DNA from: a virus
DNA length: 34,761 bases
Direction: 5' to 3' (one strand)
Virus record (IMG/VR): IMGVR_UViG_3300032309_002445
Coordinates: 1-34,761 of that record
The notes beneath the pieces were generated by a model. It saw only the letters and a list, made by a program, of their open reading frames with translations, did not search any database and was not told where the DNA came from. Both the position numbers and the translations under genes were made by a program. This document shows positions 1-22,320 of the stretch, in pieces; the stretch's first letter is position 1; each line of letters begins with the position of its first letter.

Positions 1-2523
1 ATCGTTTGCACCACGAGGATTCGCAAGTAAATTCCAGTTTTCGCGCTGTTTTTCTCTTAGTTCAACAAGTCTTGCTTCTATTTGTTGTTTGGTGCGTAAG
101 TTTCCATTCGCACCTATTCTTTCCAAGAATTGTCCCTGAATTGCTAACAGCCTATTTTGTACATCACCGTACTGTTGTGGGTTCTGTGCGTACCTTTCAA
201 CTTCTGCGAGTAGCGCGTAGTTGAAATCTCTTACAGCAGCCTGTCGTCCATCATTTTCATTAAATGAGTAAGCATCTACATGTAAGCCAAATTGTGCCCT
301 TTGTTCAGGGGTCAAAATTTCGGTGAGCATGCGCTCTACCAATGCTTCGTTTTCAGGTGTAAATTTTGCTACATCCGCTACTTGTGGTTCAAATTTGAGT
401 GCTTTAGGTGCATCTGGTGTTTTTGGTTTAGCAGGAACATCAGGTTTTGCATCAGGCACGACTTCAGGCTTGTCCGCAGAAGGTGGTTTGTTATGTTTTA
501 CAACATCACCCCATGCTTCAATGACTGATTCAATTTCTTCCTTCAGTTCGCGTACATTCATTTCCCTATCGGCACCACGCACAACATCAAGAGGACTTAT
601 ATCGCCCCTGTCTTGTGCTTGTTGAATGCGTTCAAGACGAGCATTAAGCCCAAGGATATTTGTTTCCGCGATACGCAAAGCAGTTCGTTTTTTTGCTTCA
701 GCATCACGGTCATTAGCGCCAGTAAAGTTTTTTGGGTCATTCAAAATCTCTAAGCGTTTACCCAAAACATCTCTGTTTATACGCTCAACGAAAGTATCGT
801 CTCGCAGTGCGTCATTAAGGTTGATTGCGCGTTTTTTAACCACTTTGGGTTTGGGAGTTTTTGGAGTTTTTGACTTTCCTTCAGCAATGTCTATTGCTTC
901 TTGGAATTTCTTGTTTTCAAGTTCCCTGCGACGTCTATCTTGCGCATTGATAGCAATTCGATTAAGTGCACTTATCCTAATTTCTCCCGCGCCATTTTGT
1001 CTTAATATATTAATGTTGTTCTCAATAAACTGGTTCGCTGCTCTTATTTCCGAATTGTTTATGGCTATGCGTTCACGCAAATCGTCGGGGTCACCAAATT
1101 CATCGTCAAGAATTCGTCTTTCAAAGTTTTGTAGGACATCCTCAATTGCATCATCCTCATTTCTCCACTGAACCCTAAATGCTCTTTCTTCATCTATTGA
1201 AAGTCTTCTCACATCTTGAGGCAAGAATGCATCAAGGAAAGCGTCAGGATTGCCACCCTCAAGAGCACGCTCCCTATCAGCATCAGCCAAAATAGCGTCA
1301 GCCTGACGAGCCGCTTCTGCCCGTACTTCTACTGAACGAGCCGCGTTATCGCTATTTCCCGGACCTGCAATATCATCAAATTCAACTTGCCTAAGGGGAA
1401 GATTGTTCTCACCGAAGGCTCTTATGATGTCTGCGGCAATACGGTTTGCATCACCCTCGCCTCTTGCGATTCTTTCATTTACTAAATTGCCGCGTGCGTT
1501 TCGTCTGTTGTCCTCAGAGTAGTAGCGCCCGAATCGTCTCTCTAATTCATTTTTGTCTTCACCCGCATAGTCTGGATTTCTCCAATATGCATCGTTAGGT
1601 AAGCCTCGTCGACGAAAACGATTTCTAACATTTCTTTCTGAGCGTTCATCTGGCTCGCTCTCTATGACATCCTTTGGTTTAGGTCGGCGTGGTTTAACAA
1701 CTTTTGGCTCAACAATAGGTTTTGGCTTCTTTGCTTCTTCTTGTTGCGGTTTAGGTGGTTTTGCTGTTTCTACAACTGCACGGCGACGACGACGAGCGGG
1801 TGCTTCGCCTGTGCGTGGTGCACCGGGTTCGTTGATTTCCCTATCCATCCGTCGTTGTTCAGAATCACGCAGGTTTCCTTCACCACGCGGTTTGACGGGT
1901 CGTCTTGGACGAGCGGGCGCTTCACCTGTGCGTGGCGCACCCGGCTGTTCAATCTCTCTATCCATGCGTCGTTGCTCAGAGTCACGAAGGTTTGGTGCAC
2001 GCCGTCTGCGTGGAGCACGAGGCGCTTCAGGTGTTGAAACAGCCTCAGGTGCATCAACAGATGGTGGACGAGGCGTAACAGTGCGACGCCTTCCACCGCG
2101 AGGAGCAGGAGACGGAACATCTCCGCCATCTAGTCTTTCTGCTACGCCACGCAAACCTCTTTCAAGACGACCAGCGCCACCACCTTCAGGATTTAAGCGT
2201 TGAAGAATTCTGCGCTCACGGCGAGCAATACGACGACCTCTACGAGCGTCGTCAATGTTTTCCATTCTTTCGCCAATGTCGGCAATTTGGTTTGCGATTC
2301 GGCGTGCTACGCCCCAACCGCATGAACGCCCAAACCTGTCAGTGATTTGTCCACCGTATCGTGTCCCCACTGGACAGCGAAAACCACCGCGACGGTTCGT
2401 TCCCGGAATAGACAGACTCGGATCCCAGATAGCACGAACAGCCTTTACTTCATAAGCCATAGTTGACGTGTTCTGTTCGCTAAGGAAAGATTTTGCTTTG
2501 AAGTCAACAGTATTGTTAAGCAT
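1..2523 (-). CDS. Large Arg/Pro-rich protein with Cys-X17-Cys module, C-terminus outside window
   Basis: The frame is open from an ATG at 2523 to the left window edge, giving 841 residues with no stop, so the C-terminus is missing. Residues 25-86 carry a conserved module with GFRCPVGTRYGGQITD and cysteines C50 and C68 spaced Cys-X17-Cys. This module is almost identical to residues 136-197 of the 965-residue protein two genes upstream. An Arg-rich segment follows (about 87-115), then two tandem copies of a 28-residue unit (178-205 and 217-244), a Lys/Pro/Arg linker, and a long charged, probably helical region rich in Asp, Glu, Asn and Arg. The gene starts 3 bases after the preceding stop, so it belongs to the leftward head-locus operon. 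No enzymatic motif was recognised in the visible part. It is probably a virion-associated or capsid-interior protein, by position and shared module only. Confidence 0.8.
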   Translation of the reverse strand, partial: MLNNTVDFKAKSFLSEQNTSTMAYEVKAVRAIWDPSLSIPGTNRRGGFRCPVGTRYGGQITDRFGRSCGWGVARRIANQIADIGERMENIDDARRGRRIARRERRILQRLNPEGGGAGRLERGLRGVAERLDGGDVPSPAPRGGRRRTVTPRPPSVDAPEAVSTPEAPRAPRRRRAPNLRDSEQRRMDREIEQPGAPRTGEAPARPRRPVKPRGEGNLRDSEQRRMDREINEPGAPRTGEAPARRRRRAVVETAKPPKPQQEEAKKPKPIVEPKVVKPRRPKPKDVIESEPDERSERNVRNRFRRRGLPNDAYWRNPDYAGEDKNELERRFGRYYSEDNRRNARGNLVNERIARGEGDANRIAADIIRAFGENNLPLRQVEFDDIAGPGNSDNAARSVEVRAEAARQADAILADADRERALEGGNPDAFLDAFLPQDVRRLSIDEERAFRVQWRNEDDAIEDVLQNFERRILDDEFGDPDDLRERIAINNSEIRAANQFIENNINILRQNGAGEIRISALNRIAINAQDRRRRELENKKFQEAIDIAEGKSKTPKTPKPKVVKKRAINLNDALRDDTFVERINRDVLGKRLEILNDPKNFTGANDRDAEAKKRTALRIAETNILGLNARLERIQQAQDRGDISPLDVVRGADREMNVRELKEEIESVIEAWGDVVKHNKPPSADKPEVVPDAKPDVPAKPKTPDAPKALKFEPQVADVAKFTPENEALVERMLTEILTPEQRAQFGLHVDAYSFNENDGRQAAVRDFNYALLAEVERYAQNPQQYGDVQNRLLAIQGQFLERIGANGNLRTKQQIEARLVELREKQRENWNLLANPRGAND
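1792..1992 (-). repeat. Two tandem copies of a 28-residue coding repeat (39-residue period)
   Basis: Within the partial left-most protein, the unit beginning NLRDSEQRRMDREI and ending PGAPRTGEAPAR occurs at residues 178-205 (bases 1909-1992) and 217-244 (bases 1792-1875). Twenty-six of 28 residues are the same. The units sit in an Arg/Pro-rich linker, so this looks like a duplicated linker segment rather than a folded domain. Confidence 0.8.
2266..2451 (-). repeat. Cys-X17-Cys module, copy 1 (62 residues)
   Basis: Residues 25-86 of the left-most protein, from EVKAVRA through the two cysteines to IADIGER. They match residues 136-197 of the 965-residue protein at 61 of 62 positions (only Ile/Val differs). 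By codon-by-codon comparison, 41 of the 61 matching codons differ silently. The module is therefore conserved as protein, not recently copied as DNA. Confidence 0.9.
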
Positions 2524-2526
2524 TAT

Positions 2527-2838
2527 TTACGCCGTGAAACTTTTCTTATTTGGAAGCGACTTAACTGCTTCGTTGTATAGTTCTTCCGTTACTTGACCGT
2601 CAGAACTGAAACGAGAAGATATTCCTAGAATTTTGCTCAAGATTCTTTCAACTCCGCTTTTGGGGTCAGGGATTTCTTTTCTACCACTAGATGCTGACAA
2701 AATGTCAAAAAGCGCGTTCACTGCGTCCATATCGGAGCCCCTCATTTCAACTACCCCATCAATGTTTTTTACAGCAAAAGAACTATGTTTTTTATCGGTG
2801 TAGAAATCCCTAAATTCCCCTATTGCGAACTCTTTCAT
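2527..2838 (-). CDS. Small hypothetical protein in the head-locus operon
   Basis: 103 residues, no recognised family. It lies 3 bases after the stop of the 965-residue gene and 3 bases before the start of the next gene, so it is clearly an operon member. The N-terminal half (MKEFAIGEFRDFYTDKKH onward) looks like a short mixed alpha/beta unit. The C-terminal half is helical and charged. No cysteines, signal peptide or membrane segment are visible. Its position between two proteins sharing the Cys-X17-Cys module suggests a small accessory or chaperone role, which is a guess from context only. Confidence 0.7.
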   Translation of the reverse strand: MKEFAIGEFRDFYTDKKHSSFAVKNIDGVVEMRGSDMDAVNALFDILSASSGRKEIPDPKSGVERILSKILGISSRFSSDGQVTEELYNEAVKSLPNKKSFTA

Positions 2839-2841
2839 AAT

Positions 2842-5739
2842 TTACCTCTGGTCGACAGGGAGGAATCCGACAACTGTGCTTCGTTTCCTCCGTAGTTTGG
2901 TTAAGTGGTCTTGCATTCCATCATATAATGCTCCTGCTCGCCTAACATTCGCAGGAGTCCTTTCCTGATTTTTCAATGCATCCGCAACGAATTCAGTTTT
3001 CCCAACGCTGAGAACTCTCTCTGTTTTGTTAACAATTTCATCAAATGTTTGTAACATTGCTTCATATGTTTGCTTGCGGATAGCAGCATTACCTATTTGT
3101 TGCAATTCTTGTGATGCCTCACGCATCAAGTTTCGATCCATGAAGAATTCATTTACATAGTCCGAAAAACCACGATTATGAGACCAACCAGCACGAGCGA
3201 GGTCAAGTGGAACGGCTAGTGCTTTCTTTGTTCCATCCGGCGCAGTCACTATTCGACCGATTCCGTTACCTGAATGCCTATCGGACACACCAAGAATAAA
3301 GTTAGACCAAAGGTTAGCCATTCTCATGGGTAGACCCCTGTCCGGTGCTTGTTGTAGTTGTGATTTTACAAAGTCGGTATTTGGGCGCCCTCCATCAGGA
3401 CCTACTTCATGGTCATTGGGAACATCATTGAAAGCCATTGGTGTAACAATAAACTGTGCCCCTGCATTTCGATTCGCACGGGCTCCATATTGTCCAAGGT
3501 CTCGTACGAGTTGAGGCGTTGGCTGAAGCCTGCCATCAGCGATTGCACCATCACCAATGATGCCCACCTCAGCAAGATAGTTCCACCCAACCAATTCCCC
3601 AACGTTGTCTTTATCTTCAGCGGCTTTTAAAACCCAACCTTGGTTGGTCTTTTTCCCATCTTTTCCACGCAAGAAAAATAGTTGAGTAAACCCAATTGCT
3701 CCGCCGCTGGGGGTTATTCTTCTGAACCTAGCATTTAAGTCTGTTTCGTCCGCTGATGCGTTTTGAAACAGAGCCTCAAACATAAATTCCGCCGGAACTT
3801 TCTCAAAATCCCCGCCGTTTTTAACATGGTCAATCGCTTTTTGTTGTGTATCTATTGATTTGTCTTCTTTGTCCACCCATTTGCCAAGACCGCCATTTCC
3901 TCGCTCAATAGGAAGGACTCCATGAGCATTTTCCTTACGAGTGAATGGTCGTAAGGGCGAGCCGTCTGCTTGTTGCATTGGTACCTGTGGTCGTGGTGCT
4001 CTTGGTGGAGCAGGGGGAGCGGGCGGAGTAACGGGAGGCAAGTTTGTCGGACCGACCGCAGGAGGTGGAGTGATTGGCTGAACCACTGCTGGTCTAGCAG
4101 GAGGTGGTTGTGGAGGCTCAGGCAGGGCTCTGATATTTGCACCATTTGCATTAGCCCTGTCTATTTCTGCTTTTTTTACAACATAATGCTTCCCGTTATA
4201 AAGAACTATCTTCAAGTCTTCATCTTGCGCAGCACCTCGTCGCATCTCGTTGCGTTTCCGTAATGCATCTAGCAAACTAACTTGCCCACGCTGACCGGGG
4301 GCGTTGAATGGCTTTCGTGCTGCTCTTACTGGTCGTGCTGGTGCTGGCTCGGGAACATCATCAGGTGTTGGTTTACGGGATGCGCTACGACCCGCATCAA
4401 CTGCTGTAGCGGCGCGACGACGACGACGATTGTTTTGTGGACGCCTTGGTGCTGGTGGTTCAAAGTCTTGCGGTGCACTACGACCGTGAACATCTTTCCA
4501 AGCATCACGCAAGTTATCTTTATTTATCGCGTACCATTCGCGTCGTGTCAACATTCCTGCATTGCCACCACCTTCACGAATTTCACGGACACGCTGTGCA
4601 TACTCGTTGTACTTACGAAGGACATACGGCTGGAATGCTTCAGACTCACCTGCATCAGAAGCCTCTCGTGCTGTTAGTACATCAACATTTTCTGGTTGTG
4701 GGGCGACTCGTGGGCGAGGCTGTGGGCGTCGCTGTCCTTGTGGTGCGGGTTTTGGTGTTGGTTTCGGCTTTGGCTTTGGTTTTGGTGCTGTTTCAGGAAT
4801 AACATCACGGCGTCTATTACGAGGTGGGCGTGCAGATGGTGTTTCTACTTCTTCGTCTCTTGGTGCTTGCCGTCCCCTTCGTCTTGGGACTCTTGGCATA
4901 ATTACTTCATCGCGAACTCTGCGTAATTCTGCTAATGCTTCTTGACGATTTGCTTCACGAACAGGATCTATTTCTCTCTGTGGGCGTGGTGCTCTTGGTG
5001 CATTTCCATCACCGTCAAGTCTTTGAGCAATATCTCTCAAGCCGCCTTCAATACGACCAGTTCGTTGTCCACCCTGTAGACGCGCAATCATTCTTGCGTT
5101 ACGACGGTCAAGACGACGCTTACGCTTGTCGTCATCTCGTTGTTCTAGACGCTCACCAATATCTGCAATTTGGTTAGCAATACGCCGAGCAACACCCCAT
5201 CCGCACGAGCGACCAAACCTATCTGTGATTTGTCCGCCATAACGAGTTCCTACAGGACAACGAAACCCACCACGGCGATTTGTGCCGGGAATGGAAAGGC
5301 TCGGATCCCAAACTGCGCGAACTGCTTTGACTTCAAAGTTTGCTGAAGACCGTGTTTGGTCTGATATGAAAGAAGCCGCCTTGAAAGTTAAAACATTCCT
5401 ATATTCAGCATTAGAGAATTCCGAGAGAAGAACTTCTGAAATTGAAAGAACAGGCAGAGTTACTAATTCCTGAGAATATTGTGGCTCACCATTAAGAAGA
5501 GCAACTTTCTTGGATGTCACTGAACTGTCAGGACTAGGACCTTCAATTATTTTTGAAGAGTCCATTGTCTGCTCTAGTTCGGCTCTTGTTATTTTAGTTT
5601 TAGAGTATTCTTGACGTAAAAATACAGCGATTTCCTTAGCCGATTCTGTCATCGGTTGAAATTTTGTTCCTTCAGGGGTCGTTGAGACCACCATGAAAGG
5701 CGTGTTGTCGCGATTTTTTATAATGAAAACTGATTTCAT
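2842..5739 (-). CDS. 965-aa protein: Cys-X17-Cys module, Pro/Arg-rich linker, kinase-like C-terminal domain
   Basis: Residues 1-115 form a unique N-terminal region. Residues 117-127 (LTFKAASFISD) and 136-197 carry the shared module with C161 and C179. Residues about 205-600 are low-complexity linker rich in Arg, Pro, Ala and Lys, including a KPKPKPKPTPKP run. Residues about 615-965 hold a domain with a kinase-like catalytic layout: VLK with Lys705 as possible ATP-anchoring lysine, a following Glu-rich helix, DRHSGN at 820-825, and Asp846 in PLDLA. DRHxxN followed by Asp is typical of the HipA/PI3-4-kinase/Fam20-like groups of the protein-kinase fold. The domain starts with GGLGKW, also present in the 557-residue protein. 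The ATG start has a GGAAAG ribosome site. It is probably a virion protein with a phosphotransferase-like domain; the substrate is unknown. Confidence 0.75.
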   Translation of the reverse strand: MKSVFIIKNRDNTPFMVVSTTPEGTKFQPMTESAKEIAVFLRQEYSKTKITRAELEQTMDSSKIIEGPSPDSSVTSKKVALLNGEPQYSQELVTLPVLSISEVLLSEFSNAEYRNVLTFKAASFISDQTRSSANFEVKAVRAVWDPSLSIPGTNRRGGFRCPVGTRYGGQITDRFGRSCGWGVARRIANQIADIGERLEQRDDDKRKRRLDRRNARMIARLQGGQRTGRIEGGLRDIAQRLDGDGNAPRAPRPQREIDPVREANRQEALAELRRVRDEVIMPRVPRRRGRQAPRDEEVETPSARPPRNRRRDVIPETAPKPKPKPKPTPKPAPQGQRRPQPRPRVAPQPENVDVLTAREASDAGESEAFQPYVLRKYNEYAQRVREIREGGGNAGMLTRREWYAINKDNLRDAWKDVHGRSAPQDFEPPAPRRPQNNRRRRRAATAVDAGRSASRKPTPDDVPEPAPARPVRAARKPFNAPGQRGQVSLLDALRKRNEMRRGAAQDEDLKIVLYNGKHYVVKKAEIDRANANGANIRALPEPPQPPPARPAVVQPITPPPAVGPTNLPPVTPPAPPAPPRAPRPQVPMQQADGSPLRPFTRKENAHGVLPIERGNGGLGKWVDKEDKSIDTQQKAIDHVKNGGDFEKVPAEFMFEALFQNASADETDLNARFRRITPSGGAIGFTQLFFLRGKDGKKTNQGWVLKAAEDKDNVGELVGWNYLAEVGIIGDGAIADGRLQPTPQLVRDLGQYGARANRNAGAQFIVTPMAFNDVPNDHEVGPDGGRPNTDFVKSQLQQAPDRGLPMRMANLWSNFILGVSDRHSGNGIGRIVTAPDGTKKALAVPLDLARAGWSHNRGFSDYVNEFFMDRNLMREASQELQQIGNAAIRKQTYEAMLQTFDEIVNKTERVLSVGKTEFVADALKNQERTPANVRRAGALYDGMQDHLTKLRRKRSTVVGFLPVDQR
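5149..5334 (-). repeat. Cys-X17-Cys module, copy 2 (62 residues)
   Basis: Residues 136-197 of the 965-residue protein, the counterpart of the module at 2266-2451. One amino-acid difference in 62 residues, against 41 synonymous codon differences. Looser relatives with the same cysteine spacing are at 6590-6646 and 9409-9465. Confidence 0.9.
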
Positions 5740-5860: not shown

Positions 5861-7534
5861 TTATTTCAAATTCTTCTTGATAAAGGTTTCATAAATCCAG
5901 CGAGGCGCTGTTCTCTCAACACCATCAACACCCGTGTATGTCACCATCTCAAGCGCTTCAGGAATACCACCAAACTGTGTTGAGTACTTAAACGCACCAT
6001 CAGAGTTGGTAGCGAAATCCTCAATGTTTTTTATGATGTTGTCTTTTGTGCTTGATTCAGCAAGAGCGTTAATCATGCGTGGGAATTTTCGCTTCTCGCC
6101 GACGGTGAATGCTCGTGACCGTTCAAGACTGACAACAACACCATTCGGTGCCACGAAAGCAATTTTGCTCATAGATGGTCCACCAAGTAGTGCTAAATCG
6201 TCTGATGTAATGTCTTCAGGCAATTGAATTGCTCGTATCATTGCGCCTTCAACCATGTCAGGGTTTTCGCTGAACGACCGAAGAACGGAAGACGAGACAA
6301 CAGGACGCAGGATTACTCCGTCCCTACGAATCATTCTGCCTTCACCGCGTGGTGCACCTTTCAGGAGCGAGATTGAATCCTTGACAGCAGTATCAAACTT
6401 GCTCTTATTGAAAGCACCCGTTCTAGGGATTTGAGCCATTCGTTGGATTTGGATAGTTCTAGCGTTGCTCGGGTTTCCTTCTAGAACTTCTGAAAGGTTT
6501 TCGGCTCGTGCGTTACCAAGGTTCATTGCTCCACGAACTGCTCGTCCGAGAAGTGCCAAAGGTCCGGGTATTTCAAAGAGTTGAGCACCACAGGTTGAGA
6601 AGCGGTTGTCGGTGAACCTTCCACCATATTCAAATCCAGCAGGGCACCGTGCCTGCCTATTTCGGTTTGGCTTCAGTCGGCTTAAAGCACCACCGCCACC
6701 GCCGGGAACAAGAGCGCCATACACACGAGAACGAATAGGCGATGTAATACTTGAAACATTGCCCGGCGTTATAGCCGAACCAACCGCCTGCAATGCACGA
6801 CCAGCAGGGTTGCTTGACCCAACTAATCCTGCTTTTACTTCAACATCTTCTTCGTCGTTTTTTTCAACACGGTAGCCACCGCCTCGTTTTTTGTATTCAC
6901 GAACAAGCCAAGCATTGGCATACGCAGATGGGTAAACATTAAACTTCTTTTTCGCCTCATTTTTGATACGGGCATAAAGTTCTGGATCCGTAGGAACATT
7001 CTCGCTCTTAAATGTGGTCACATTTATAGGCTTGTTTCCGTCACGAACTTCCGAAGTTTCAGCGCGACGCTTTCTCCGTACGGCAGAATTAATTTCCTCA
7101 GCAGTCATACGCATCGCTATGGATTTCTTTACACACTTGGGGTATTTTCCTGAATCAGCATCTCCCCGTCCGCATGGCTCAAAACCGCCACCCTTTTTTG
7201 GACGAGAGATGTCAACCCATTCTTCATCAAACCATTTTCCAAGACCGCCACGCTTTGTTTCATCACCAACGAAAGTCTCTGCACCAAGGCGAGAAACTCG
7301 TGTTTTTAGATAAAGGGTCGCCTTAAAATTCAAAAGTTCCCTGTTTCCATTAAGTGGGACTTTCCTAATATCGGAGCCACTCTTAAAAATAAAATTCTGT
7401 CTAGATTGTTCAGGATTGAAGTAAATTTCTTGGTCAAGCACGAGATTAGTGCGCTTCATTAGTGTTTTTTCACGCAAAGCAACACGAAAACGCCGAGCAA
7501 AAATATCAAAATTTTGGTTAAATGATTCACTCAT
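5861..7534 (-). CDS. 557-aa head-locus protein with DUF5872-like segment and Cys-X17-Cys motif
   Basis: Residues 67-77 (LLNFKATLYLK) resemble the FKA segment that precedes the cysteine module in neighbouring proteins. Residues 97-220 contain GGLGKWFDEEWVDIS, CGRGDADSGKYPKCV and YPSAYANAWLVREYKKRGG. I recognise these as resembling a small domain (DUF5872-like, recalled from memory) found in phage and giant-virus proteins; its function is unknown. Residues 231-240 contain EVKAG. C297 and C315 form the third Cys-X17-Cys motif (RCPAGFEYGGRFTDNRFSTC), with a Gly/Ala-rich helix following. The C-terminal 230 residues are unassigned and show no DRH kinase signature. The start overlaps the preceding 86-residue gene by 8 bases. 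It is probably a minor capsid or packaged protein, inferred from location. Confidence 0.75.
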   Translation of the reverse strand: MSESFNQNFDIFARRFRVALREKTLMKRTNLVLDQEIYFNPEQSRQNFIFKSGSDIRKVPLNGNRELLNFKATLYLKTRVSRLGAETFVGDETKRGGLGKWFDEEWVDISRPKKGGGFEPCGRGDADSGKYPKCVKKSIAMRMTAEEINSAVRRKRRAETSEVRDGNKPINVTTFKSENVPTDPELYARIKNEAKKKFNVYPSAYANAWLVREYKKRGGGYRVEKNDEEDVEVKAGLVGSSNPAGRALQAVGSAITPGNVSSITSPIRSRVYGALVPGGGGGALSRLKPNRNRQARCPAGFEYGGRFTDNRFSTCGAQLFEIPGPLALLGRAVRGAMNLGNARAENLSEVLEGNPSNARTIQIQRMAQIPRTGAFNKSKFDTAVKDSISLLKGAPRGEGRMIRRDGVILRPVVSSSVLRSFSENPDMVEGAMIRAIQLPEDITSDDLALLGGPSMSKIAFVAPNGVVVSLERSRAFTVGEKRKFPRMINALAESSTKDNIIKNIEDFATNSDGAFKYSTQFGGIPEALEMVTYTGVDGVERTAPRWIYETFIKKNLK

Positions 7535-7787: not shown

Positions 7788-8092
7788 AGGTCTTCCCCTT
7801 CGGCTGGTTTCTTTTCCATCTCCACAATTTGCTCATTGGCAAACTTGACGCGAAGCCCATTCAGGACATTTTCTATTTCAGGCGTCACTTCACCAGTCTT
7901 GACATTTTGGTAAGAAAAGCGAGTCAGGAAGTTCTCAAAGGGCAGATTTTTGTTTGCGTCAAAGTATGTGTACCAAGACTTTTGTCTGTCAAATGATTGA
8001 CAAATAACTTCATATTTTTCTTCATTATGGACAAATGCGATGGGTTCAAATTTTGTGTATTCATCGCCAGTGATTAGTGCGTAGGAAGCCAT
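7784..8092 (-). CDS. Small hypothetical protein, 102 aa
   Basis: Starts at an ATG that overlaps the stop of the 528-residue kinase-like gene by one base (TAATG) and ends with ATGA coupling to the 86-residue gene. It appears as a compact alpha/beta protein (YALITGDEYTKFEPIAFVHNEE, then aromatic-rich WYTYFDANKNLPFENFL) with an acidic tail ending AEGEDL. No family, cysteine cluster or membrane segment is recognised. Coupling to the kinase-like gene suggests similar expression levels. Confidence 0.7.
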   Translation of the reverse strand: MASYALITGDEYTKFEPIAFVHNEEKYEVICQSFDRQKSWYTYFDANKNLPFENFLTRFSYQNVKTGEVTPEIENVLNGLRVKFANEQIVEMEKKPAEGEDL

Positions 8093-9678
8093 TAGAAATC
8101 AACCATCGCTTCATATTTATCTACACCATTTCTTTTACCCCATTCAATCAGGGACTCTGGATTTAGCGGTTTTGGCTCTCGGAACCTTGACATCATCGCC
8201 CTCATTAGTTCTTCTGGATTGGCATTTTGTAATATATCTATTCGTTTTATGGCGTCTTGTATTGCGGCTTCGCGCCCTGATTCAAGAGAACCGCCAAGTT
8301 GTCCAAGATGCGTTCGTGCTTCCTTTATCTGAGTAAGCAATTTTTCTCTGTCTATCGCTCGCAATTCTTCCTGAATCTTTTCAATTTCGAGGACTACTTG
8401 CTTACGACCTTCAAGGGTATTGAGTTTTTCGGCTTCCAGTTCTAAACGAACTGCCATAACTCCGCCAACGGGTTTTACCCAATATTTGTACTCTTCGTCA
8501 GCACCCATTCCCGGCGGAAATGCTAGTGACTGGTCAATCGGAATCAAGGCTGAATTTTTTCCTGCTTCGTCCGTAGCAAGAAGCATGTTCGCTTCATGTC
8601 TGTCATTGTTCTGCAAAATAGAGTCAAAAAAAGCCAACCTAACTATCTCTTCACTGTTTATAGATGTTGACTCTCCATCTCCCGATACCGCACCAGAGGA
8701 AATGTCGCCTTCGTACCTATTGTGAGCAAGTTCAGATACCAACGAATGACCTTTATTAATCTTAATACCAGTATCGCCAAGTGTTTCCTCTACCCCATAA
8801 GTGAATCTCATTGGCATGGGTTCGTAGCCAAGATGATTGCCAAAAATTTCTGCGACTATTTCGTTATATGCTTCGTCCCCGTGAAAAGAGCCTTTGCCGT
8901 TCTGGTATTTTATTCCTAACAAAGCACCAGTCTTGGTGTCTCTGAGTCGGGTCATGCCATTGATTCCGCCACCTTCACCTAGTTTCTCAAACCGTTTAGT
9001 CTCACCACCAGTCATACGAACGCCAGTATTTTTGAAGACTTCCTCAATCGCTAACTTTTCAGCAGAATTCGGTATATCTATATTTGCCAAAATCGCTTCA
9101 ATGAGATGCTCGTCTGGTATGTCTGTTAATGCTCCGCCCTCTGCAACATGGGAAACAGAATCTTTTAACTCTAATAAGAATTTACGTTCGCCAGTAATAG
9201 GAGAGAAAACTCCATTACCTTTCGGTACGCGCTTCTGCGCAGTGAAACCTTCCTCATCATGGAAACCAATATCTGGATTTGTTTTCAAGTCCTTGGCTTT
9301 TACGGTCTTGGTTGCTTTTCCGCGTTTAAAACCATCCGATGCACGGTCAGCCAATTTCTCAGACGCATCAACTGCCTGCTGAGCCAATGTCTCCGCGCTA
9401 GGAACCATGCAGTTCGACATTTGCATGTCAGTAAATTGATTGGCATTAGGCGTGCCCGGTGGACAACGAAGTTTCCCTAGTGAGTCAACGATGACACCAG
9501 CGGCACGAGCGGCACGCATTCCAACTGTTTGCAAACCATCATTGTCCTTGATGGTCGGTCCAAGAAAACCCTTAAACAGTAGAACATTTTCTTGAACAAC
9601 CGAAATTGAGTTTAGATACTCGAAAACTCTCTCGTTTGCGTCAAAAGCACGAGACGACCTAATCATCGTCTCCTCCAA
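8092..9678 (-). CDS. 528-aa protein: Cys-X17-Cys motif plus kinase-like (HipA/PI3-4K-like) domain
   Basis: The N-terminus has C72 and C90 in RCPPGTPNANQFTDMQMSNC, the fourth copy of the Cys-X17-Cys motif in this locus. Residues about 228-400 have a kinase-like layout: a Gly-rich stretch (KLGEGGGING), Lys257 in LGIKYQNG, a Glu-bearing helix (EAYNEIVAEIFG), SLVSELA as a hinge-like segment, the catalytic-loop signature DRHEAN at 359-364, and Asp382 in IPIDQS as the metal-binding candidate. All of the expected polar residues are present, so activity is plausible. The last 120 residues are a Lys/Glu-rich predicted coiled coil and a helical tail. Family assignment (HipA, PI3/4-kinase or Fam20-like) rests on the DRHxxN pattern only; the substrate is unknown. 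Its position among head genes suggests a virion-associated enzyme. Confidence 0.75.
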   Translation of the reverse strand: MEETMIRSSRAFDANERVFEYLNSISVVQENVLLFKGFLGPTIKDNDGLQTVGMRAARAAGVIVDSLGKLRCPPGTPNANQFTDMQMSNCMVPSAETLAQQAVDASEKLADRASDGFKRGKATKTVKAKDLKTNPDIGFHDEEGFTAQKRVPKGNGVFSPITGERKFLLELKDSVSHVAEGGALTDIPDEHLIEAILANIDIPNSAEKLAIEEVFKNTGVRMTGGETKRFEKLGEGGGINGMTRLRDTKTGALLGIKYQNGKGSFHGDEAYNEIVAEIFGNHLGYEPMPMRFTYGVEETLGDTGIKINKGHSLVSELAHNRYEGDISSGAVSGDGESTSINSEEIVRLAFFDSILQNNDRHEANMLLATDEAGKNSALIPIDQSLAFPPGMGADEEYKYWVKPVGGVMAVRLELEAEKLNTLEGRKQVVLEIEKIQEELRAIDREKLLTQIKEARTHLGQLGGSLESGREAAIQDAIKRIDILQNANPEELMRAMMSRFREPKPLNPESLIEWGKRNGVDKYEAMVDF

Positions 9679-9951
9679 TTACTCTCTAATTGATTCAGAC
9701 GATTGGTTGATTGTCGAAAGTTGAACCACATCTTCATCGTCTTCATCTTGTTTTTTAGAAGCCTTCTTAGGTTGTGCTTTTTCTTCCGACTTAACTTCAA
9801 CAGGCAAATCTTCCTGTACGACGACCTCTTCAAGAATTTCTTCAACAACCTCTTCAGGAGCAGGTGAAGTTTCAACTACTTGTGTTTCAACCTGCGGTGT
9901 TTGCACCGGAGGCATAAAACCCGAATCAAGGGGCTGACGTTCTTTTTTCAT
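9679..9951 (-). CDS. Small Glu-rich acidic protein, 90 aa
   Basis: Very acidic and low in complexity, with Val/Glu runs (EEVVEEILEEVV) and Pro/Thr spacers. The C-terminus ends in a Lys/Asp stretch and a Ser-rich tail. The start overlaps the upstream stop in TAATG, and the stop is directly followed by the kinase-like gene. No family is recognised. Small acidic helical proteins in this position can be scaffolding proteins, and this one lies after the protease gene where scaffolds are often found. That role is inference from composition and place. Confidence 0.65.
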   Translation of the reverse strand: MKKERQPLDSGFMPPVQTPQVETQVVETSPAPEEVVEEILEEVVVQEDLPVEVKSEEKAQPKKASKKQDEDDEDVVQLSTINQSSESIRE

Positions 9952-11468
9952 TAAACTTCGCCAAAGCCTGTTTCAATCTGAAGCATTTCAAGTTCCATCA
10001 AGTTACTAAGGAACTGCTTTGCTTCGTCATCAACAAGAACTTTTTCTTCCGAAGACCAAGATTCTGGAATCATGTCTTCGCGGTCAAGTTCTTTTGCACG
10101 CTTCATGATGTGCATTTTTGCTTTTGCTTTATCTGATGCACGACCATAAGCCATGATGGCGTTCTTCAAGTCTTCTTCATCTTTGATTGGGAAAGAACCA
10201 TCGCTGAGAGCCATTCCGCCCTTAGCCATTTCCATACGCTCTTCTTCGCTATACATTGCCTTGAGTGCAATATCAGCAATCTCTTCATCAATGTCCGATG
10301 CTTCGTCAGCGTCATATTCGTCGTATCCAAGGATTTCGCCATCTACACCAACATAGACATCGTATGACTTGCCATCAATGCCTTCAATTTCAACAGCGTA
10401 TGCGTCGTATCCGTCAAACATGTCTGCATCAACGGAGACAACATCTCCCTCAATTGACTTTGTTGCAATAGCAGATGCTTCGCTGAAAGAAATAACTTTC
10501 TGACCCGGGATTGTTGCTACTTCACCGATTAAGTCCTCGTTAAGGAGGTGCCAACCCATGCATTCTCCACTTGTTCCATCAAAGTAAGCCTCAACTGGCT
10601 TTCCATCTTTGCGTTGAACATCAACAACAAAAATGTCAACTTCGTCTGCGTAACCAGAGTCCAAAACTTTTCCTGCGAACATGGTTTCAGCCATGCCCTC
10701 AACTTCAAGAAGGCTTGGCATTGTGTCTTGCTGTTCACATCCACCTGGGCATGATGCACAGATTTGCGAACCACCTGCATAGACTTTCCGCTCAATTGCG
10801 CAAACGAAAGCAAGGTCATCGTAGTCTGCTGACTTTACGCCCATGGTCTCCATGCGCTTGGCGCGAGCCTTCTTGCGTTGCTCCATCATTTTCTCGATTT
10901 CGCCGTACATCTTTTCTTCTTCGTCGTCCAAGTCGTCCGGCATATCGTCGTCTTCGTCGTCTTCGCCGTACATTTTTTCGTCTTCAAGAAAAGCCATCAT
11001 GCGCTTTTTCTTTTTCATCAGTGCATCCATGGACATTTCACCGTCACCATGCATACCTTTTTCTTCTTCGTCGTACATCTTTTCTTGCTCCATGAAATCC
11101 ATCATGCGCTTTTTCTTTGCCTCATCCATTGGCATATCGTCTTCGCCGTACATCTTTTCTTCGTCAAGGACAGCCATCATTGGCTTTTTCTTTTTCTTTG
11201 ACGGAGCCATTGGCACAGCCATGCCACTGTTCATCATTTTTTCTTCAGATGCAGTCACCCACTCGCTCTTTTCTCCACGAACGGGAGTAGATGCTTCTGG
11301 TGCCATATCGGCGGGAACGGCTTGTTCTGTCTGTGTGACAGCCTTTGCTCCGCACTTGCCGCAAACTTTCGCACCGGGCTTGTAGCCACAATCCTTCAAC
11401 TCTAAACCTTTGGCGCATTCGATTCCGCCGTCAGCAAGAAGTTTTACTATTGGTGTCTTATTTTCCAT
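9951..11468 (-). CDS. Acidic head-locus protein with KMY repeats, PepSY-like units and DUF6582-like C-terminus
   Basis: I chose ATG 11468 because AAGGAG (11478-11483) lies at ideal spacing, giving 505 residues. The frame stays open to a GTG at 11651, and that 61-residue extension contains a CSVCSNPSRC cluster, so a longer form is possible. In the long-form numbering, residues 157-250 hold four Lys-rich/acidic repeats built around EKMYxE. Then come four cysteines (C284, C298, C301, C305) and two PepSY-like units (about 318-378 and 386-447). A segment at 478-532 (ALSDGSFPIK ... NAIMAYGRA ... HIMKRAKEL ... MIPESW) resembles DUF6582, often seen in actinophage capsid and protease proteins (recalled knowledge). 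It lies directly after the protease gene, a usual scaffold or capsid position, but I see no HK97 capsid fold signature. Function unknown; likely structural or scaffolding. Confidence 0.7.
   Translation of the reverse strand: MENKTPIVKLLADGGIECAKGLELKDCGYKPGAKVCGKCGAKAVTQTEQAVPADMAPEASTPVRGEKSEWVTASEEKMMNSGMAVPMAPSKKKKKPMMAVLDEEKMYGEDDMPMDEAKKKRMMDFMEQEKMYDEEEKGMHGDGEMSMDALMKKKKRMMAFLEDEKMYGEDDEDDDMPDDLDDEEEKMYGEIEKMMEQRKKARAKRMETMGVKSADYDDLAFVCAIERKVYAGGSQICASCPGGCEQQDTMPSLLEVEGMAETMFAGKVLDSGYADEVDIFVVDVQRKDGKPVEAYFDGTSGECMGWHLLNEDLIGEVATIPGQKVISFSEASAIATKSIEGDVVSVDADMFDGYDAYAVEIEGIDGKSYDVYVGVDGEILGYDEYDADEASDIDEEIADIALKAMYSEEERMEMAKGGMALSDGSFPIKDEEDLKNAIMAYGRASDKAKAKMHIMKRAKELDREDMIPESWSSEEKVLVDDEAKQFLSNLMELEMLQIETGFGEV
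10902..11183 (-). repeat. Degenerate KMY coding repeats (four units)
   Basis: Units of the form basic run, MMxxxxxEKMYxE, acidic run recur four times in the acidic PepSY/DUF6582-like protein (EEKMYGEDD, QEKMYDEEE, DEKMYGEDD, EEKMYGEIE). They alternate positive and negative charge, as in a helical or coiled-coil scaffold. DNA copies are imperfect. Confidence 0.75.
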
Positions 11469-11640
11469 GTCTGTGGACTCCTTGTAGTGCATCGTTTTTG
11501 CAATGCACCTTGATGGATTAGAGCAAACAGAGCATGGTGTCAGACGTTTTTCGCCAGACATCACACACTGATACTTTGCTGTTTTTTGTGGTAAACCTGT
11601 TATTGAAGTATAACTCATAATAGTGTTTTGTTTTTGTTTC

Positions 11641-11669
11641 AAATGCAACACAGATTCTGTGAAGCATTT
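11641..11669. other. 29-bp imperfect palindrome in the gap after the protease gene
   Basis: The arms AAATGC..CACAGA and TCTGTG..GCATTT are symmetrical around base 11655, with one 2x2 A/A mismatch. On the plus strand the hairpin is followed at once by TTTTTTATTT, the orientation of an intrinsic terminator for plus-strand (antisense) transcripts. On the minus strand it would be a leader hairpin upstream of the 505-residue gene. It overlaps the GTG of the possible longer form of that gene. Confidence 0.45.
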
Positions 11670-11676
11670 TTTTTAT

Positions 11677-13782
11677 TTACAGAACATCCATCACATTAAC
11701 GAGAGCGTCAAAGGCGTCATCTTCAAGGTCGGTCAAATCAACCTTGACTCCGTCTTCGGTAACTTCTGATTTGATTTGGTAGTAATCCAAAACTGGATCA
11801 AGAAGGTCTTTCAATTCGTAAAGTGAACGCTTGTCTGAGGAGATGGTCATAGTCTCATCCTCGGTGTAACCAAATGATTTTGCTTGCATGTCGGTTGCAA
11901 TACCACCAGCACTAAGGACTTCCTGCAAAAGATTGAAAGCATTTTGCAGTTTGAGCATGTTTCGTGAATTGATAACACGACCAGCCTTGACCTCAATGTC
12001 TTCGTCAGCATCTTTGCCCATCAACTCTGAAATCGCAGCCATTAACATGCCAATCATCTGCTTTGGATTTTTATCTCCGCCACCACAACCGCAGTCATCA
12101 TCGTCGTCAGAACCTTTGTAGTAAGGCATTTCCATGACTCCGCCATTGTCGTCATCGCCTTCCATGACCCAGTTGTCTTTGTCAGCCATGTAGTTAATGA
12201 AGTCAGGCTCAGCATTCATGAATTGCTTCAAAGCCTCATATGCCTTTTCGTCTGCTTCATCATCATTTTCAAACTCAACATCTTCCATCTTCATAGTCTC
12301 TTCTGTCTCGTCTGATTCAGCCAAGCGACTAGCCATAGCCTCCATCATTTCGTAGCCCTTTTCTTCCGATTCAAGGAAGTCAAAGACGGACTTGATTTCG
12401 TCTTCGGTCATGGTTTCAAGCGACTTGCCGGGTTTTAGGACTCCACGAAGACGGTTATTGAATTCGTTGTCATCCCAATTCCGTTTGCGTAGTTTTCCAC
12501 GGCAGTTCTTCATGCCGGGGTGATGGCAACCTTCGTTCGGCCAGAGACCAGTGGTTTCGTGATGCAACCATGCGCAGATGTTGTTCAACGGGTAAAGTTC
12601 AGGGTGGTTGGCAAGAATTACGCGACAACGGCGGAATCCGCCGGGTTTACGCATAATTGGACGCCAGTAACGAAGGAGTTGTTCAAGGTTCCCACGGCGA
12701 GGTCCGTATCCACGGGTTCGCGCAGTGACGATTTCTTGCGGAATGATTCCACCAAGAGGGTCTGCTTTTTCTGGTGATTTTGGCTTAACACCCATGGGGA
12801 CTTGTGGGTCAGCGTCAAGGCGGTAACGGTCTTCGTAGCGTCGCTCAGCGTCTGAACCGCTAGGAACATTGTCTGAATCTGCGTTGACATAAACGGTTTG
12901 TGGCTTTACTCGTGTTGCGTCACCAAACATGAATTGATTGTTATCAAAATGGTAGGAAACACGCATCGTCATGATGCCTTGACCCTCTACACGGTGGTCA
13001 AAAATCACGCTATTTGCGTCTGATTCCCTTATTTTAACGGCTCCACCAAACTTCTTGGCGAGTGCGTATGGCAGGTTCTCCTGACGACTACGCGATGGCA
13101 TTGGCGCATCTACGGCGTCATCATCGTATTCATCGTCTCGTTCTTCTTGTGGCTTATTGCGTTGCATGTTGCTTGCCATGAAGCGTGCGAGAAGTGAACG
13201 ACCCGCTTCGGTGATGTTGCCGTTTTCGTCACGCATCTGACCTTTTGAGTCGTTGCCTTCAAAGGACTTAATTGAGATTGTGCCCGTAAGTTGGTTTGCG
13301 CCGTGAAGAACAGGACTTGCCTCATATAGTTCAACTTTTTTGAGGACATTTGCTTGGCGTTGTGGGTCAAAATCTGCATCAAGGGTTTTGTAGCCAATTG
13401 ACCACTCTTGCTCTTCGCCAAAGAAGGCAACATCTGCGAAAGCCTGACGTCCTCGCTCGGATTTAAGGTTAAATTGAACTTTTGCGTAAAGTCCACCAAT
13501 GCCAGCGGCACGCATTTTGATTGGAAGTCGTGGGTCAGACGGTGGAACTTCGTACATTTCAAGTACTTTTCCGATTGGTTCATTCCAGTTGTGACCCCAA
13601 ACGACGCGAGGTTTACGCCTTTTAAGGCTCTCGGTGAATGCGCCCGGCACGATGATGTCGCCAACGCTGTCCTTGTTCCCAATGCCTGCAACGAAGCATT
13701 CAACGACACCAAGCGCTTCGTCAATATTGAATTGACCTTGGAGTGCTTTGTATTGCTGAGAATCTACTGCGGTGTTTGGCAT
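11677..13782 (-). CDS. Prohead protease (S78-like) with long C-terminal structural extension
   Basis: The first 170 residues match the HK97-type prohead protease (peptidase S78) pattern: GDIIVPGAF (41-49), His64 in VVWGHNWNEPIG, Ser128 in EWSIGY, and Glu154 in LYEASPVLHGA, in the usual order. It would cleave scaffold and capsid delta domains during head maturation. At 701 residues it is much longer than the roughly 200 residues usual for the family. The extension contains an unassigned domain (about 235-300), a Cys/His cluster (C386, C403, C419, C427 with HH at 407-408 and 420-421), acidic helices, a DDDDDCGCGGG stretch, and EVKAGRV at 597-603. The extension may act as scaffold. The ATG has a GGAG ribosome site nearby and the gene follows the portal gene after a 93-base gap. 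Confidence 0.85.
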   Translation of the reverse strand: MPNTAVDSQQYKALQGQFNIDEALGVVECFVAGIGNKDSVGDIIVPGAFTESLKRRKPRVVWGHNWNEPIGKVLEMYEVPPSDPRLPIKMRAAGIGGLYAKVQFNLKSERGRQAFADVAFFGEEQEWSIGYKTLDADFDPQRQANVLKKVELYEASPVLHGANQLTGTISIKSFEGNDSKGQMRDENGNITEAGRSLLARFMASNMQRNKPQEERDDEYDDDAVDAPMPSRSRQENLPYALAKKFGGAVKIRESDANSVIFDHRVEGQGIMTMRVSYHFDNNQFMFGDATRVKPQTVYVNADSDNVPSGSDAERRYEDRYRLDADPQVPMGVKPKSPEKADPLGGIIPQEIVTARTRGYGPRRGNLEQLLRYWRPIMRKPGGFRRCRVILANHPELYPLNNICAWLHHETTGLWPNEGCHHPGMKNCRGKLRKRNWDDNEFNNRLRGVLKPGKSLETMTEDEIKSVFDFLESEEKGYEMMEAMASRLAESDETEETMKMEDVEFENDDEADEKAYEALKQFMNAEPDFINYMADKDNWVMEGDDDNGGVMEMPYYKGSDDDDDCGCGGGDKNPKQMIGMLMAAISELMGKDADEDIEVKAGRVINSRNMLKLQNAFNLLQEVLSAGGIATDMQAKSFGYTEDETMTISSDKRSLYELKDLLDPVLDYYQIKSEVTEDGVKVDLTDLEDDAFDALVNVMDVL

Positions 13783-20151: not shown

Positions 20152-21285
20152 GTGACTAGGCAAAGACTATTTCTTGACATTTCTTGTGTTGACGCCGCTC
20201 GTGAACGGTTGCGTCATGTGTACGACACCTTTGACACTGTTTGCTACCAATTTTCTGGTGGTAAAGACAGTACAGCGATTATCTACCTTGCAAAAGAAAT
20301 CCACGAAGAGCGAAATCTCGGAAAAGTAAAAGTTATTTTTCGTGACGAAGAAATGGTTAGCCCTACAGTTGTTTCCTTTGTTGAAAAAGTCAGGAATTAT
20401 GATTGGGTTGACATGGAATGGTATTGCCTTCCATCAGGTCAAGAAATATGGGTTCTAGGTCGGCGTGAGTATGTTTTGCTTTGGTCTCCACAAAGAAAGG
20501 CTGAAGGTCGTTTAGTTCGTGAAATGCCTGAGTGGGCTATCAAGGCGGAACACTTTGGTTTAGACCCGTCAAAACCCTGTCCTAATCTTGTTGACTACTA
20601 CACGATGCAGGGCAAGAAGGGTAGAACCGCATTCGTTATGGGTGTCCGTGCCAACGAGTCAATGGTCAGATACAGGTCGTGCGTACAGAAACTTCATGAA
20701 AACTACATTGTTTCACCTTTTCTTTTACAGAAATCAATACCTCTTAAATTTGCCAAAGTCATTTATGACTGGACAACCGAAGATGTCATGAAGTTCATCA
20801 TTGATGAACACAAGGCTGAATATTGCGAATATTATGATTTGGCAGAATTGACAGGTAGCAACAGTCGTGTTGGAATTCCTTTACATTCTGTTGCAATTAG
20901 ACGCATTGGCGATGTCGTTGCTACTGAGCCAGAGTTTTACGACCAGTTAGTTCGCTGTTTTCCTCAAATTGATGCTCAACGGAGATATTGGGCTGACTTT
21001 GATATTGAGAGTTTGATTCTGAACTATTCGTCTATGGGTTGGGATGGTGTATCTCAATGTATTGATGACCACATGCTGACACCCGGAATGCGATTGGATG
21101 CATTGAAGTTCGCTTCTGCTTTCAGAAAAAAAAGAGCAGTAGACCCATTTGGTTTCCCTCTTGAATACTTGATTAGAACGCTCTTGTTAAACGAATTTCA
21201 TCAGTCAACACCAACTCCTGTCGGACCGAAAACGAGGGCACATACGATGCGTTTGAAGGCGATAGAGGCTGGCGAGGATTACTAA
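20152..21285 (+). CDS. PAPS-reductase-like PP-loop ATPase (IbrA-like)
   Basis: 377 residues from GTG 20152. The PP-loop SGGKDST is at residues 35-41, followed by IFRDEEMVSPTVVSFVEKV, a segment typical of phosphoadenosine-phosphosulfate-reductase-like proteins. GKKGRTAFVMGVRANESMVRYRSC resembles the family's later conserved block. The length is far above true PAPS reductases (about 240 residues) and fits the IbrA/DUF3440-like group found in phages. Such enzymes adenylate a substrate before sulfur or nitrogen chemistry; the real substrate is unknown. The next gene is ParB/IbrB-like, the usual partner in IbrA-IbrB pairs. Confidence 0.85.
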   Translation: MTRQRLFLDISCVDAARERLRHVYDTFDTVCYQFSGGKDSTAIIYLAKEIHEERNLGKVKVIFRDEEMVSPTVVSFVEKVRNYDWVDMEWYCLPSGQEIWVLGRREYVLLWSPQRKAEGRLVREMPEWAIKAEHFGLDPSKPCPNLVDYYTMQGKKGRTAFVMGVRANESMVRYRSCVQKLHENYIVSPFLLQKSIPLKFAKVIYDWTTEDVMKFIIDEHKAEYCEYYDLAELTGSNSRVGIPLHSVAIRRIGDVVATEPEFYDQLVRCFPQIDAQRRYWADFDIESLILNYSSMGWDGVSQCIDDHMLTPGMRLDALKFASAFRKKRAVDPFGFPLEYLIRTLLLNEFHQSTPTPVGPKTRAHTMRLKAIEAGEDY

Positions 21286-21906: not shown

Positions 21907-22320
21907 ATGCCACGACCAAGAACGACTGAAGATGTTGAATTCCGCACAGATGTGGATAGTGCTGGCGATGTTGTTCGACGTGCTCGTTTTGTCCGTCGTC
22001 CTCGCCGAGTAGGTGGTCGTAATGTTCCCGGAAATGCTCGTTATTATCGTCGTCGTCAGGCTGAACTCAATGCCGCTAGACGGCAACGCCGTGGCGCTGT
22101 AGCAGGAGCGGGTAACGCAGCCCGTCGTGGACGAGCCGCCGAGCGAACAGCAAGAGGTGCAGGTCGTGCGGGTCGTAATGCAGGCAATCCTCGTACGGTA
22201 ACCCCTCGTGGTACTGGTGGAAATGCTCGTCGTCGTGGTGGTGTTCGTGGCGCTCTTGCCCGTGCCGCAAGAGGAATTGCTGACAGGCTCGAAAGACGCC
22301 GAACTCGTCGTAGCCGATAA
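21907..22320 (+). CDS. Arg-rich, Lys-free basic protein (protamine-like), 137 aa
   Basis: By my count there are 41 arginines (30%), no lysine and about 10 acidic residues. It is built of RRG, ARR and GRAG blocks with Gly, Ala and Asn spacers. The start has AGGAG 8 bases upstream, and the next gene follows after 13 bases with its own GGAGG. Arginines are mostly CGT or CGC. The composition is protamine- or histone-tail-like, suggesting nucleic acid binding, perhaps DNA packing within the capsid. Placement between the DNA cassette and the first connector gene supports a virion-related role. It could instead be an intrinsically disordered structural linker. No family is recognised. Confidence 0.75.
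   Translation: MPRPRTTEDVEFRTDVDSAGDVVRRARFVRRPRRVGGRNVPGNARYYRRRQAELNAARRQRRGAVAGAGNAARRGRAAERTARGAGRAGRNAGNPRTVTPRGTGGNARRRGGVRGALARAARGIADRLERRRTRRSR

What the first reader, a model, noticed from the sequence alone, without database searches (positions are those of the whole stretch)
2266..5334. Near-identical 62-residue Cys module in two adjacent genes despite saturated silent differences
Residues 25-86 of the left-most protein and 136-197 of the 965-residue protein match at 61 of 62 positions, but 41 of the 61 matching codons differ synonymously (counted from the sequence). This excludes a recent DNA copy or gene conversion and shows very strong purifying selection on the protein. The rest of the two proteins is largely different. 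The module probably binds one fixed partner, such as the capsid or a scaffold (inference).
Basis: partly seen in the sequence, partly recalled or inferred. Interest (0 to 1): 0.85.

Follow-up and report, generated by a model that had tools for sequence, protein, structure and literature searches.

The report
Shared tag on phage head cargo proteins
Several large neighbouring proteins of a lake-water phage group carry the same short protein tag in front of swappable enzyme domains, and the tag is most likely what loads these enzymes into the virus head for delivery into the host, although its binding partner is unknown.

Summary
The silent sites are fully randomised: 41 differences against 38.1 ± 3.6 expected for independent codon choice; pN 0.0145, pS 0.88.

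The pair is part of a larger battery. A diverged Cys-X17-Cys core occurs in four window genes. In 58 related viral loci and the window it occurs in 189 ORFs, in the order K-D-(A1)-B-A2, between the portal/prohead protease and the major capsid gene. Behind the tag sit swappable domains: mostly PI3/4K-HipA-like kinases with intact catalytic residues, also DUF3626, ParB-like and, in distant phages, ART-PolyVal and RNase_T. Near-identical phages keep 98% identical N-termini with 26% identical C-termini. Copies within a phage match better than between phages, although their DNA is nearly randomised.

Best reading: a head-loading tag for injected polyvalent effectors, working like the T4 capsid targeting sequence but not homologous to it. 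The partner is unproven. "Excludes gene conversion" holds for this phage, but some relatives keep a silent-site trace of it. No Pfam or PHROG family covers the module.

The parts
2266..2451 (-). 62-residue Cys module, copy A (residues 25-86 of the left-most ORF)
5149..5334 (-). 62-residue Cys module, copy B (residues 136-197 of the 965-aa protein)
6554..6673 (-). diverged module copy D (RCPAGFEYGGRFTDNRFSTCG), residues 288-327 of the 557-aa protein
9367..9486 (-). diverged module copy K (RCPPGTPNANQFTDMQMSNC), residues 65-104 of the 528-aa protein
1..2523 (-). gene A: tag followed by an Arg/Pro-rich stretch; C-terminus beyond the window
2842..5739 (-). gene B: N-domain, FKA motif, tag, Arg/Pro-rich stretch, kinase-like C-terminus
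5386..5739 (-). B-specific N-terminal domain (about 118 aa), homologous in B genes of distant lineages
2494..2502 (-). FKA motif upstream of module A, candidate prohead protease site (inferred)
5377..5385 (-). FKA motif upstream of module B, candidate prohead protease site (inferred)
2845..3972 (-). kinase-like domain of B (residues 590-965), DRHxxN at residue 820
5861..7534 (-). gene D (557 aa): DUF5872 plus diverged module
8092..9678 (-). gene K (528 aa): diverged module plus PI3/4-kinase-like domain
9951..11651 (-). 566-aa PepSY-domain protein, constant neighbour just upstream of the module genes
11677..13782 (-). prohead protease (Peptidase_S78), 701 aa
13876..16086 (-). portal fused to a MuF domain

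Best explanation
The module is a shared N-terminal loading tag of a battery of internal head proteins. During head assembly the tag, with the conserved FKA site just before it, is bound by one common component of the prohead (scaffold region of the protease, portal/MuF, or inner face of the capsid protein). This brings each large protein into the head. After infection the proteins are ejected with the DNA, and their C-terminal domains (HipA/PI4K-like kinases and others) act on the host. The tag is kept nearly identical within a phage because all copies must fit the same partner, while the C-terminal effectors are exchanged freely. Shown: the tag family, its four copies here, saturated silent sites, matched change within phages, head-gene location, swappable C-termini, kinase fold (predicted) and catalytic residues. 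Inferred: packaging, partner, protease cleavage, ejection and action on the host.
For: Conserved order portal, protease, PepSY protein, K-D-(A1)-B-A2, 377/379-aa protein, HK97-type major capsid gene. Tag core Cys-X17-Cys in 188 of 188 proteins where the motif could be read, across four gene classes. Within-phage A-B identity 0.913 against 0.852 +- 0.008 after shuffling (25 loci); with one phage per lineage, 7 of 7 A copies match their own B best, p = 0.0002. B genes of distant lineages share the same extra N-domain, so the A/B split is older than the lineages. The same tag with a swapped effector: 98% against 26% identity. Effector types typical of injected polyvalent proteins: ART-PolyVal and RNase_T in distant tag-bearing proteins, ParB-like, kinase. 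Named actino-myophages with related portals carry giant proteins, and in one case an annotated ADP-ribosyltransferase, in the same portal-to-capsid slot. Precedent: T4 internal proteins IPII and IPIII share an identical targeting peptide but differ elsewhere (PMC9026906).
Against: No virion proteomics or binding data. If FK|A is cleaved, the module stays on the mature protein, unlike the T4 targeting sequence, which is removed; so the module could instead work after ejection. The cleavage motif is only weakly enriched in head proteins and was chosen after looking. Some within-phage matching may come from old gene conversion. The module model is of moderate confidence (pLDDT 77, pTM 0.41) with no fold match that names a function.
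Confidence: 0.55

Rival explanations
1. The module acts after ejection, for example as a membrane-, envelope- or DNA-binding or assembly domain that all injected effectors need, and is not the packaging signal.
For: It lies downstream of the candidate cleavage site, so it would stay on the mature protein. It is followed by a long, strongly basic Arg-rich helix. In class D it sits in the middle of the protein.
Against: Change in concert within each phage is better explained by a phage-encoded partner than by a host target; the tag sits close to the N-terminus in A and K.
Confidence: 0.22
2. The near-identity is the left-over of repeated gene conversion between tag copies; silent sites then randomise between events, and no common partner is needed beyond ordinary purifying selection.
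For: Some relatives keep fewer silent differences than expected (L040 0.62, L005 0.64, L031 0.73); silent differences are slightly lower within than between phages (p about 0.01).
Against: The window pair and L003, with the most alike proteins, have 1.07 and 0.98 of the random expectation. Conversion alone does not keep the protein fixed while silent sites saturate.
Confidence: 0.15
3. The module is a structural building block (for example a decoration, plug or scaffold-like domain) of a head whose large proteins are mainly structural, and the kinase-like domains are inactive leftovers.
For: Head-gene location and very basic linkers.
Against: The kinase catalytic residues (K, E, DRHxxN, D) are invariant in 19 proteins, and C-termini are exchanged wholesale, which is unusual for structural parts.
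Confidence: 0.08

Closest known systems
T4 capsid targeting sequence (CTS) of internal proteins IPI-III and Alt
   Same: One short N-terminal signal shared by different cargo proteins of the same phage, next to prohead protease processing; cargo includes an enzyme (Alt) injected into the host (PMC9026906, PMC7411985).
   Different: The CTS is about 10-20 residues and is cut off; this module is about 62 residues with two invariant cysteines, lies after the candidate cut site, and no sequence relation is apparent.
Polyvalent proteins of phages and conjugative elements (Iyer et al. 2017, PMC5512222)
   Same: Giant multidomain proteins encoded among late head genes, with kinase, ART, ParB-like and nuclease domains, predicted to be packaged and injected; a distant tag-bearing protein matches ART-PolyVal.
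   Different: The passages read from that paper name no such Cys tag; the kinases here are PI3/4K-HipA-like (DRHxxN), and several separate proteins share one tag.
Polymorphic toxin systems
   Same: Constant N-terminal delivery part, exchangeable C-terminal effector.
   Different: Delivery would be by the phage head; immunity genes and secretion domains were not looked for.
SPN3US ejection proteins with long propeptides
   Same: Several head proteins of one myophage carry N-terminal propeptides, and for one of them a role in targeting to the prohead is proposed (PMC7411985).
   Different: Those propeptides are 111-130 residues and are cut at a T4-like motif; no shared Cys module is mentioned in the passages read.
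HipA / PI4K / CtkA / CotH atypical kinases
   Same: Predicted fold (VIA Z 10-12 to CotH, PI4KII-alpha, CtkA, Fam20C, HipA; rmsd 4.3-5.4 over about 220-260 residues) and catalytic residues.
   Different: About 10% sequence identity; fused to a phage tag; substrate unknown.

Membership tests
T4-type capsid targeting sequence | short N-terminal peptide shared by several cargo proteins of one phage | tested here: met
   module or its diverged form in 3-5 consecutive proteins per phage, near the N-terminus in A and K
T4-type capsid targeting sequence | removed by the prohead protease as a propeptide | tested here: inconclusive
   conserved [KR][AST] site lies before the module, which would leave the module on the protein; no cleavage data
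T4-type capsid targeting sequence | necessary and sufficient for head incorporation | not testable with these tools
   needs virions and fusion proteins
Polyvalent proteins | large multidomain protein encoded among virion or packaging genes | tested here: met
   about 500-2,900 aa, between portal/protease and capsid genes
Polyvalent proteins | contains domains catalogued in polyvalent proteins (ART-PolyVal, ParB, kinase, nuclease) | tested here: inconclusive
   in relatives: ART-PolyVal E 3e-6 (below the Pfam cut-off), RNase_T E 5e-14, ParB-like phrog_1033 E 8e-5; in the window only a PI3/4K-like kinase, which was not compared with the kinase clade of that paper
Polyvalent proteins | packaged in the virion and injected | not testable with these tools
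   no proteomics at hand
PI3/4K-HipA-like kinase superfamily | conserved nucleotide-binding lysine, DRHxxN and metal-binding aspartate in a kinase fold | tested here: met
   invariant K116, E126, D231-R-H-x-x-N236, D257 in 19 proteins; model pLDDT 89, pTM 0.91; best PDB matches are atypical kinases
Known domain family for the module (Pfam or PHROGs) | significant profile match over the module | tested here: not met
   no Pfam or PHROG match over the module in the window proteins; window A and B have no family at all

The most novel reading that the evidence does not exclude
A phage-wide sorting code: a previously unnamed Cys-X17-Cys tag that co-evolves as a matched set within each phage and lets it load an exchangeable arsenal of kinase-like and other effectors into its head, as a phage counterpart of polymorphic toxin systems.
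Probability: 0.35. Interest if true: 0.78.

Novelty: new variant of a known kind. Interest (0 to 1): 0.6.

Why it matters
If the tag is the loading signal, it gives a sequence marker for injected effectors in a large group of uncultured phages whose head cargo is otherwise unannotated, and it predicts which giant proteins enter the host. It would also give a head-loading signal outside the T4 group and a natural series of kinase effectors to assay. The matched change of copies with randomised silent sites is a clean natural case of several proteins held to one partner.

Tried and rejected
Module in named phages: no tblastn match in 50,697 records. Module in 84,980 species genomes: no relative, so no prophage or host link. 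Fold of the module: moderate model, no informative match; sequence profile against the PDB gave only a chance-level ribosomal zinc protein, E 1. A motif scan of the portal-to-capsid region of three named relatives found no clear module. L026 B looked like a recombinant between lineages, but silent sites were not decisive. K|A/S cleavage motif: weak, post-hoc enrichment only. The second possible site inside the module (EVK|A) was dropped because other lineages have R at that place. A zinc finger is not claimed, since only two cysteines are conserved.

Full report
The window is a 34,761-base virus record with head genes on the minus strand (portal with MuF domain, prohead protease, then the finding's genes) and terminase, sheath and tail genes on the plus strand (sheath and tail names are from reading the sequence). 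The two module copies are exactly as described: 61/62 residues, 41/61 silent codon differences, 142/186 nucleotides, 42 of 44 differences at third positions. Nei-Gojobori gives pS 0.88 and pN 0.0145. If codons were drawn independently from this phage's own usage, 38.1 ± 3.6 of the matching codons would differ; 41 do. So the silent sites carry no memory of a common copy, while the protein is almost frozen.

The module is not limited to this phage or to two genes. A scan of viral contigs gave 58 loci; in these and the window an iterated profile found 189 module-bearing ORFs. Four classes exist: K (RCPPGTPNANQFTDMQMSNC), D (RCPAGFEYGGRFTDNRFSTCG, with DUF5872 in the window copy), and A and B (RCPVGTRYGGQITDRFGRSCG). 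The shared core is R-C-P-x-G, and the second cysteine is always 17 residues further on (188 of 188). The gene order is K-D-(A1)-B-A2. Upstream lie portal, protease and a PepSY protein; downstream a 377/379-aa protein and an HK97-type major capsid gene. More distant phages have a single protein, often 2,500-2,900 aa long, with the K-type module, again right after the PepSY protein. No relative was found in named phages or species genomes. Portal relatives point to actinobacterial myophages, whose portal-to-capsid slot also holds giant proteins and, in Gordonia phage GMA6, an annotated ADP-ribosyltransferase.

The copies within a phage change together. Across 25 loci, A-B identity within a phage is 0.913 against 0.852 ± 0.008 for shuffled partners. 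Taking one phage per lineage, all seven A copies match their own B best (p = 0.0002). Matched changes include S/N at module position 43, Q/A/E at 55, D/N at 58, and the PPGMAF variant in both copies of L050. Because B genes of distant lineages share a homologous extra N-terminal domain, the A/B split is older than the lineages, so the matching is real concerted change. Its cause is less certain. Silent differences within phages average 0.88 of the random expectation against 0.955 between lineages, and single pairs fall to 0.62-0.64. Occasional conversion in some lineages is therefore likely. It left no trace in the window phage (1.07) or its nearest relative L003 (0.98).

Behind the tag comes a long Arg/Pro-rich stretch and then a variable C-terminal domain. 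The commonest is a kinase-like domain with DRHxxN and a later aspartate. A profile of 19 such domains matches PI3-kinases and PI4-kinases in the PDB (E 1.6e-4). The model (pLDDT 89, pTM 0.91) finds CotH, PI4KII-alpha, CtkA, Fam20C and HipA at Z 10-12, and the catalytic residues are invariant. Other tag-bearing proteins carry DUF3626 (E 6e-10), ParB-like, KTSC, RNase_T and ART-PolyVal domains. B genes of near-identical phages can be 98% identical through the tag and 26% identical in the last 330 residues (L015 against L018; five such pairs at 88-98% against 26-30%). This is a constant tag with exchanged effectors.

A conserved [FYH][KR][AST]xxF motif sits about 15 residues before the tag in A and B; related NFKA and LFKG motifs stand in D and K. 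The capsid proteins of the group have conserved KS[LI]G and EFK[AST]L sites in the N-arm, and HK97 is cut at K103/S104 (PMC10275583). This suggests a prohead protease site, but enrichment in head proteins is weak and the motif was chosen after inspection. Cleavage is a lead, not a result.

Mechanism, by inference: the tag docks all these proteins on one prohead component, the protease trims the short N-terminal piece, and the effectors leave with the DNA. This works like the T4 capsid targeting sequence, where IPII and IPIII share an identical peptide but differ elsewhere (PMC9026906). It is not filed as a member of that family: no sequence relation is apparent, the size differs, and the tag would stay on the protein. 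By domains and gene location the proteins resemble the polyvalent proteins of Iyer et al. (PMC5512222); packaging itself is untested. The main rival is that the module acts after ejection.

Noticed in passing
window 1-2523 (-), about residues 178-260: Gene A holds two copies of an NLRDSEQRRMDREI..PGAPRTGEAPARRR motif in its Arg-rich stretch; a regular expression for its core finds it once or twice in 42 of 189 module-bearing ORFs.
   Followed up: partly
L018 11139-12278 and L029 10894-12027: A conserved 377-379-aa protein sits between the last tagged gene and the major capsid gene and has repeated Cys motifs of another kind (GCxGVRT...YYAVC, NLGCIGIRRYTARDGKLVWLPC).
   Followed up: no
window 5861-7534 (-), about residues 90-225: The D protein carries DUF5872 and a neighbouring stretch shared with Pelagibacter, Roseobacter and Synechococcus phages; its role is unknown.
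   Followed up: no
L007, L008, L003, L026 (K genes): The K slot holds several unrelated C-terminal domains (kinase, DUF3626, ParB-like, unknown) behind the same tag in related phages.
   Followed up: partly
L064 18697-32571: Streptomyces phage Gilgamesh has a single gene of about 13.9 kb (gp48, hypothetical) in the slot after the portal.
   Followed up: no
window 21907-22320 (+): A 137-aa protein that is very rich in Arg, Gly and Ala lies just before the neck/tail genes.
   Followed up: no
window 20152-21285 (+): A 377-aa protein with an SGGKDST loop (PAPS-reductase/DndC-like by motif only) lies between terminase and tail genes.
   Followed up: no
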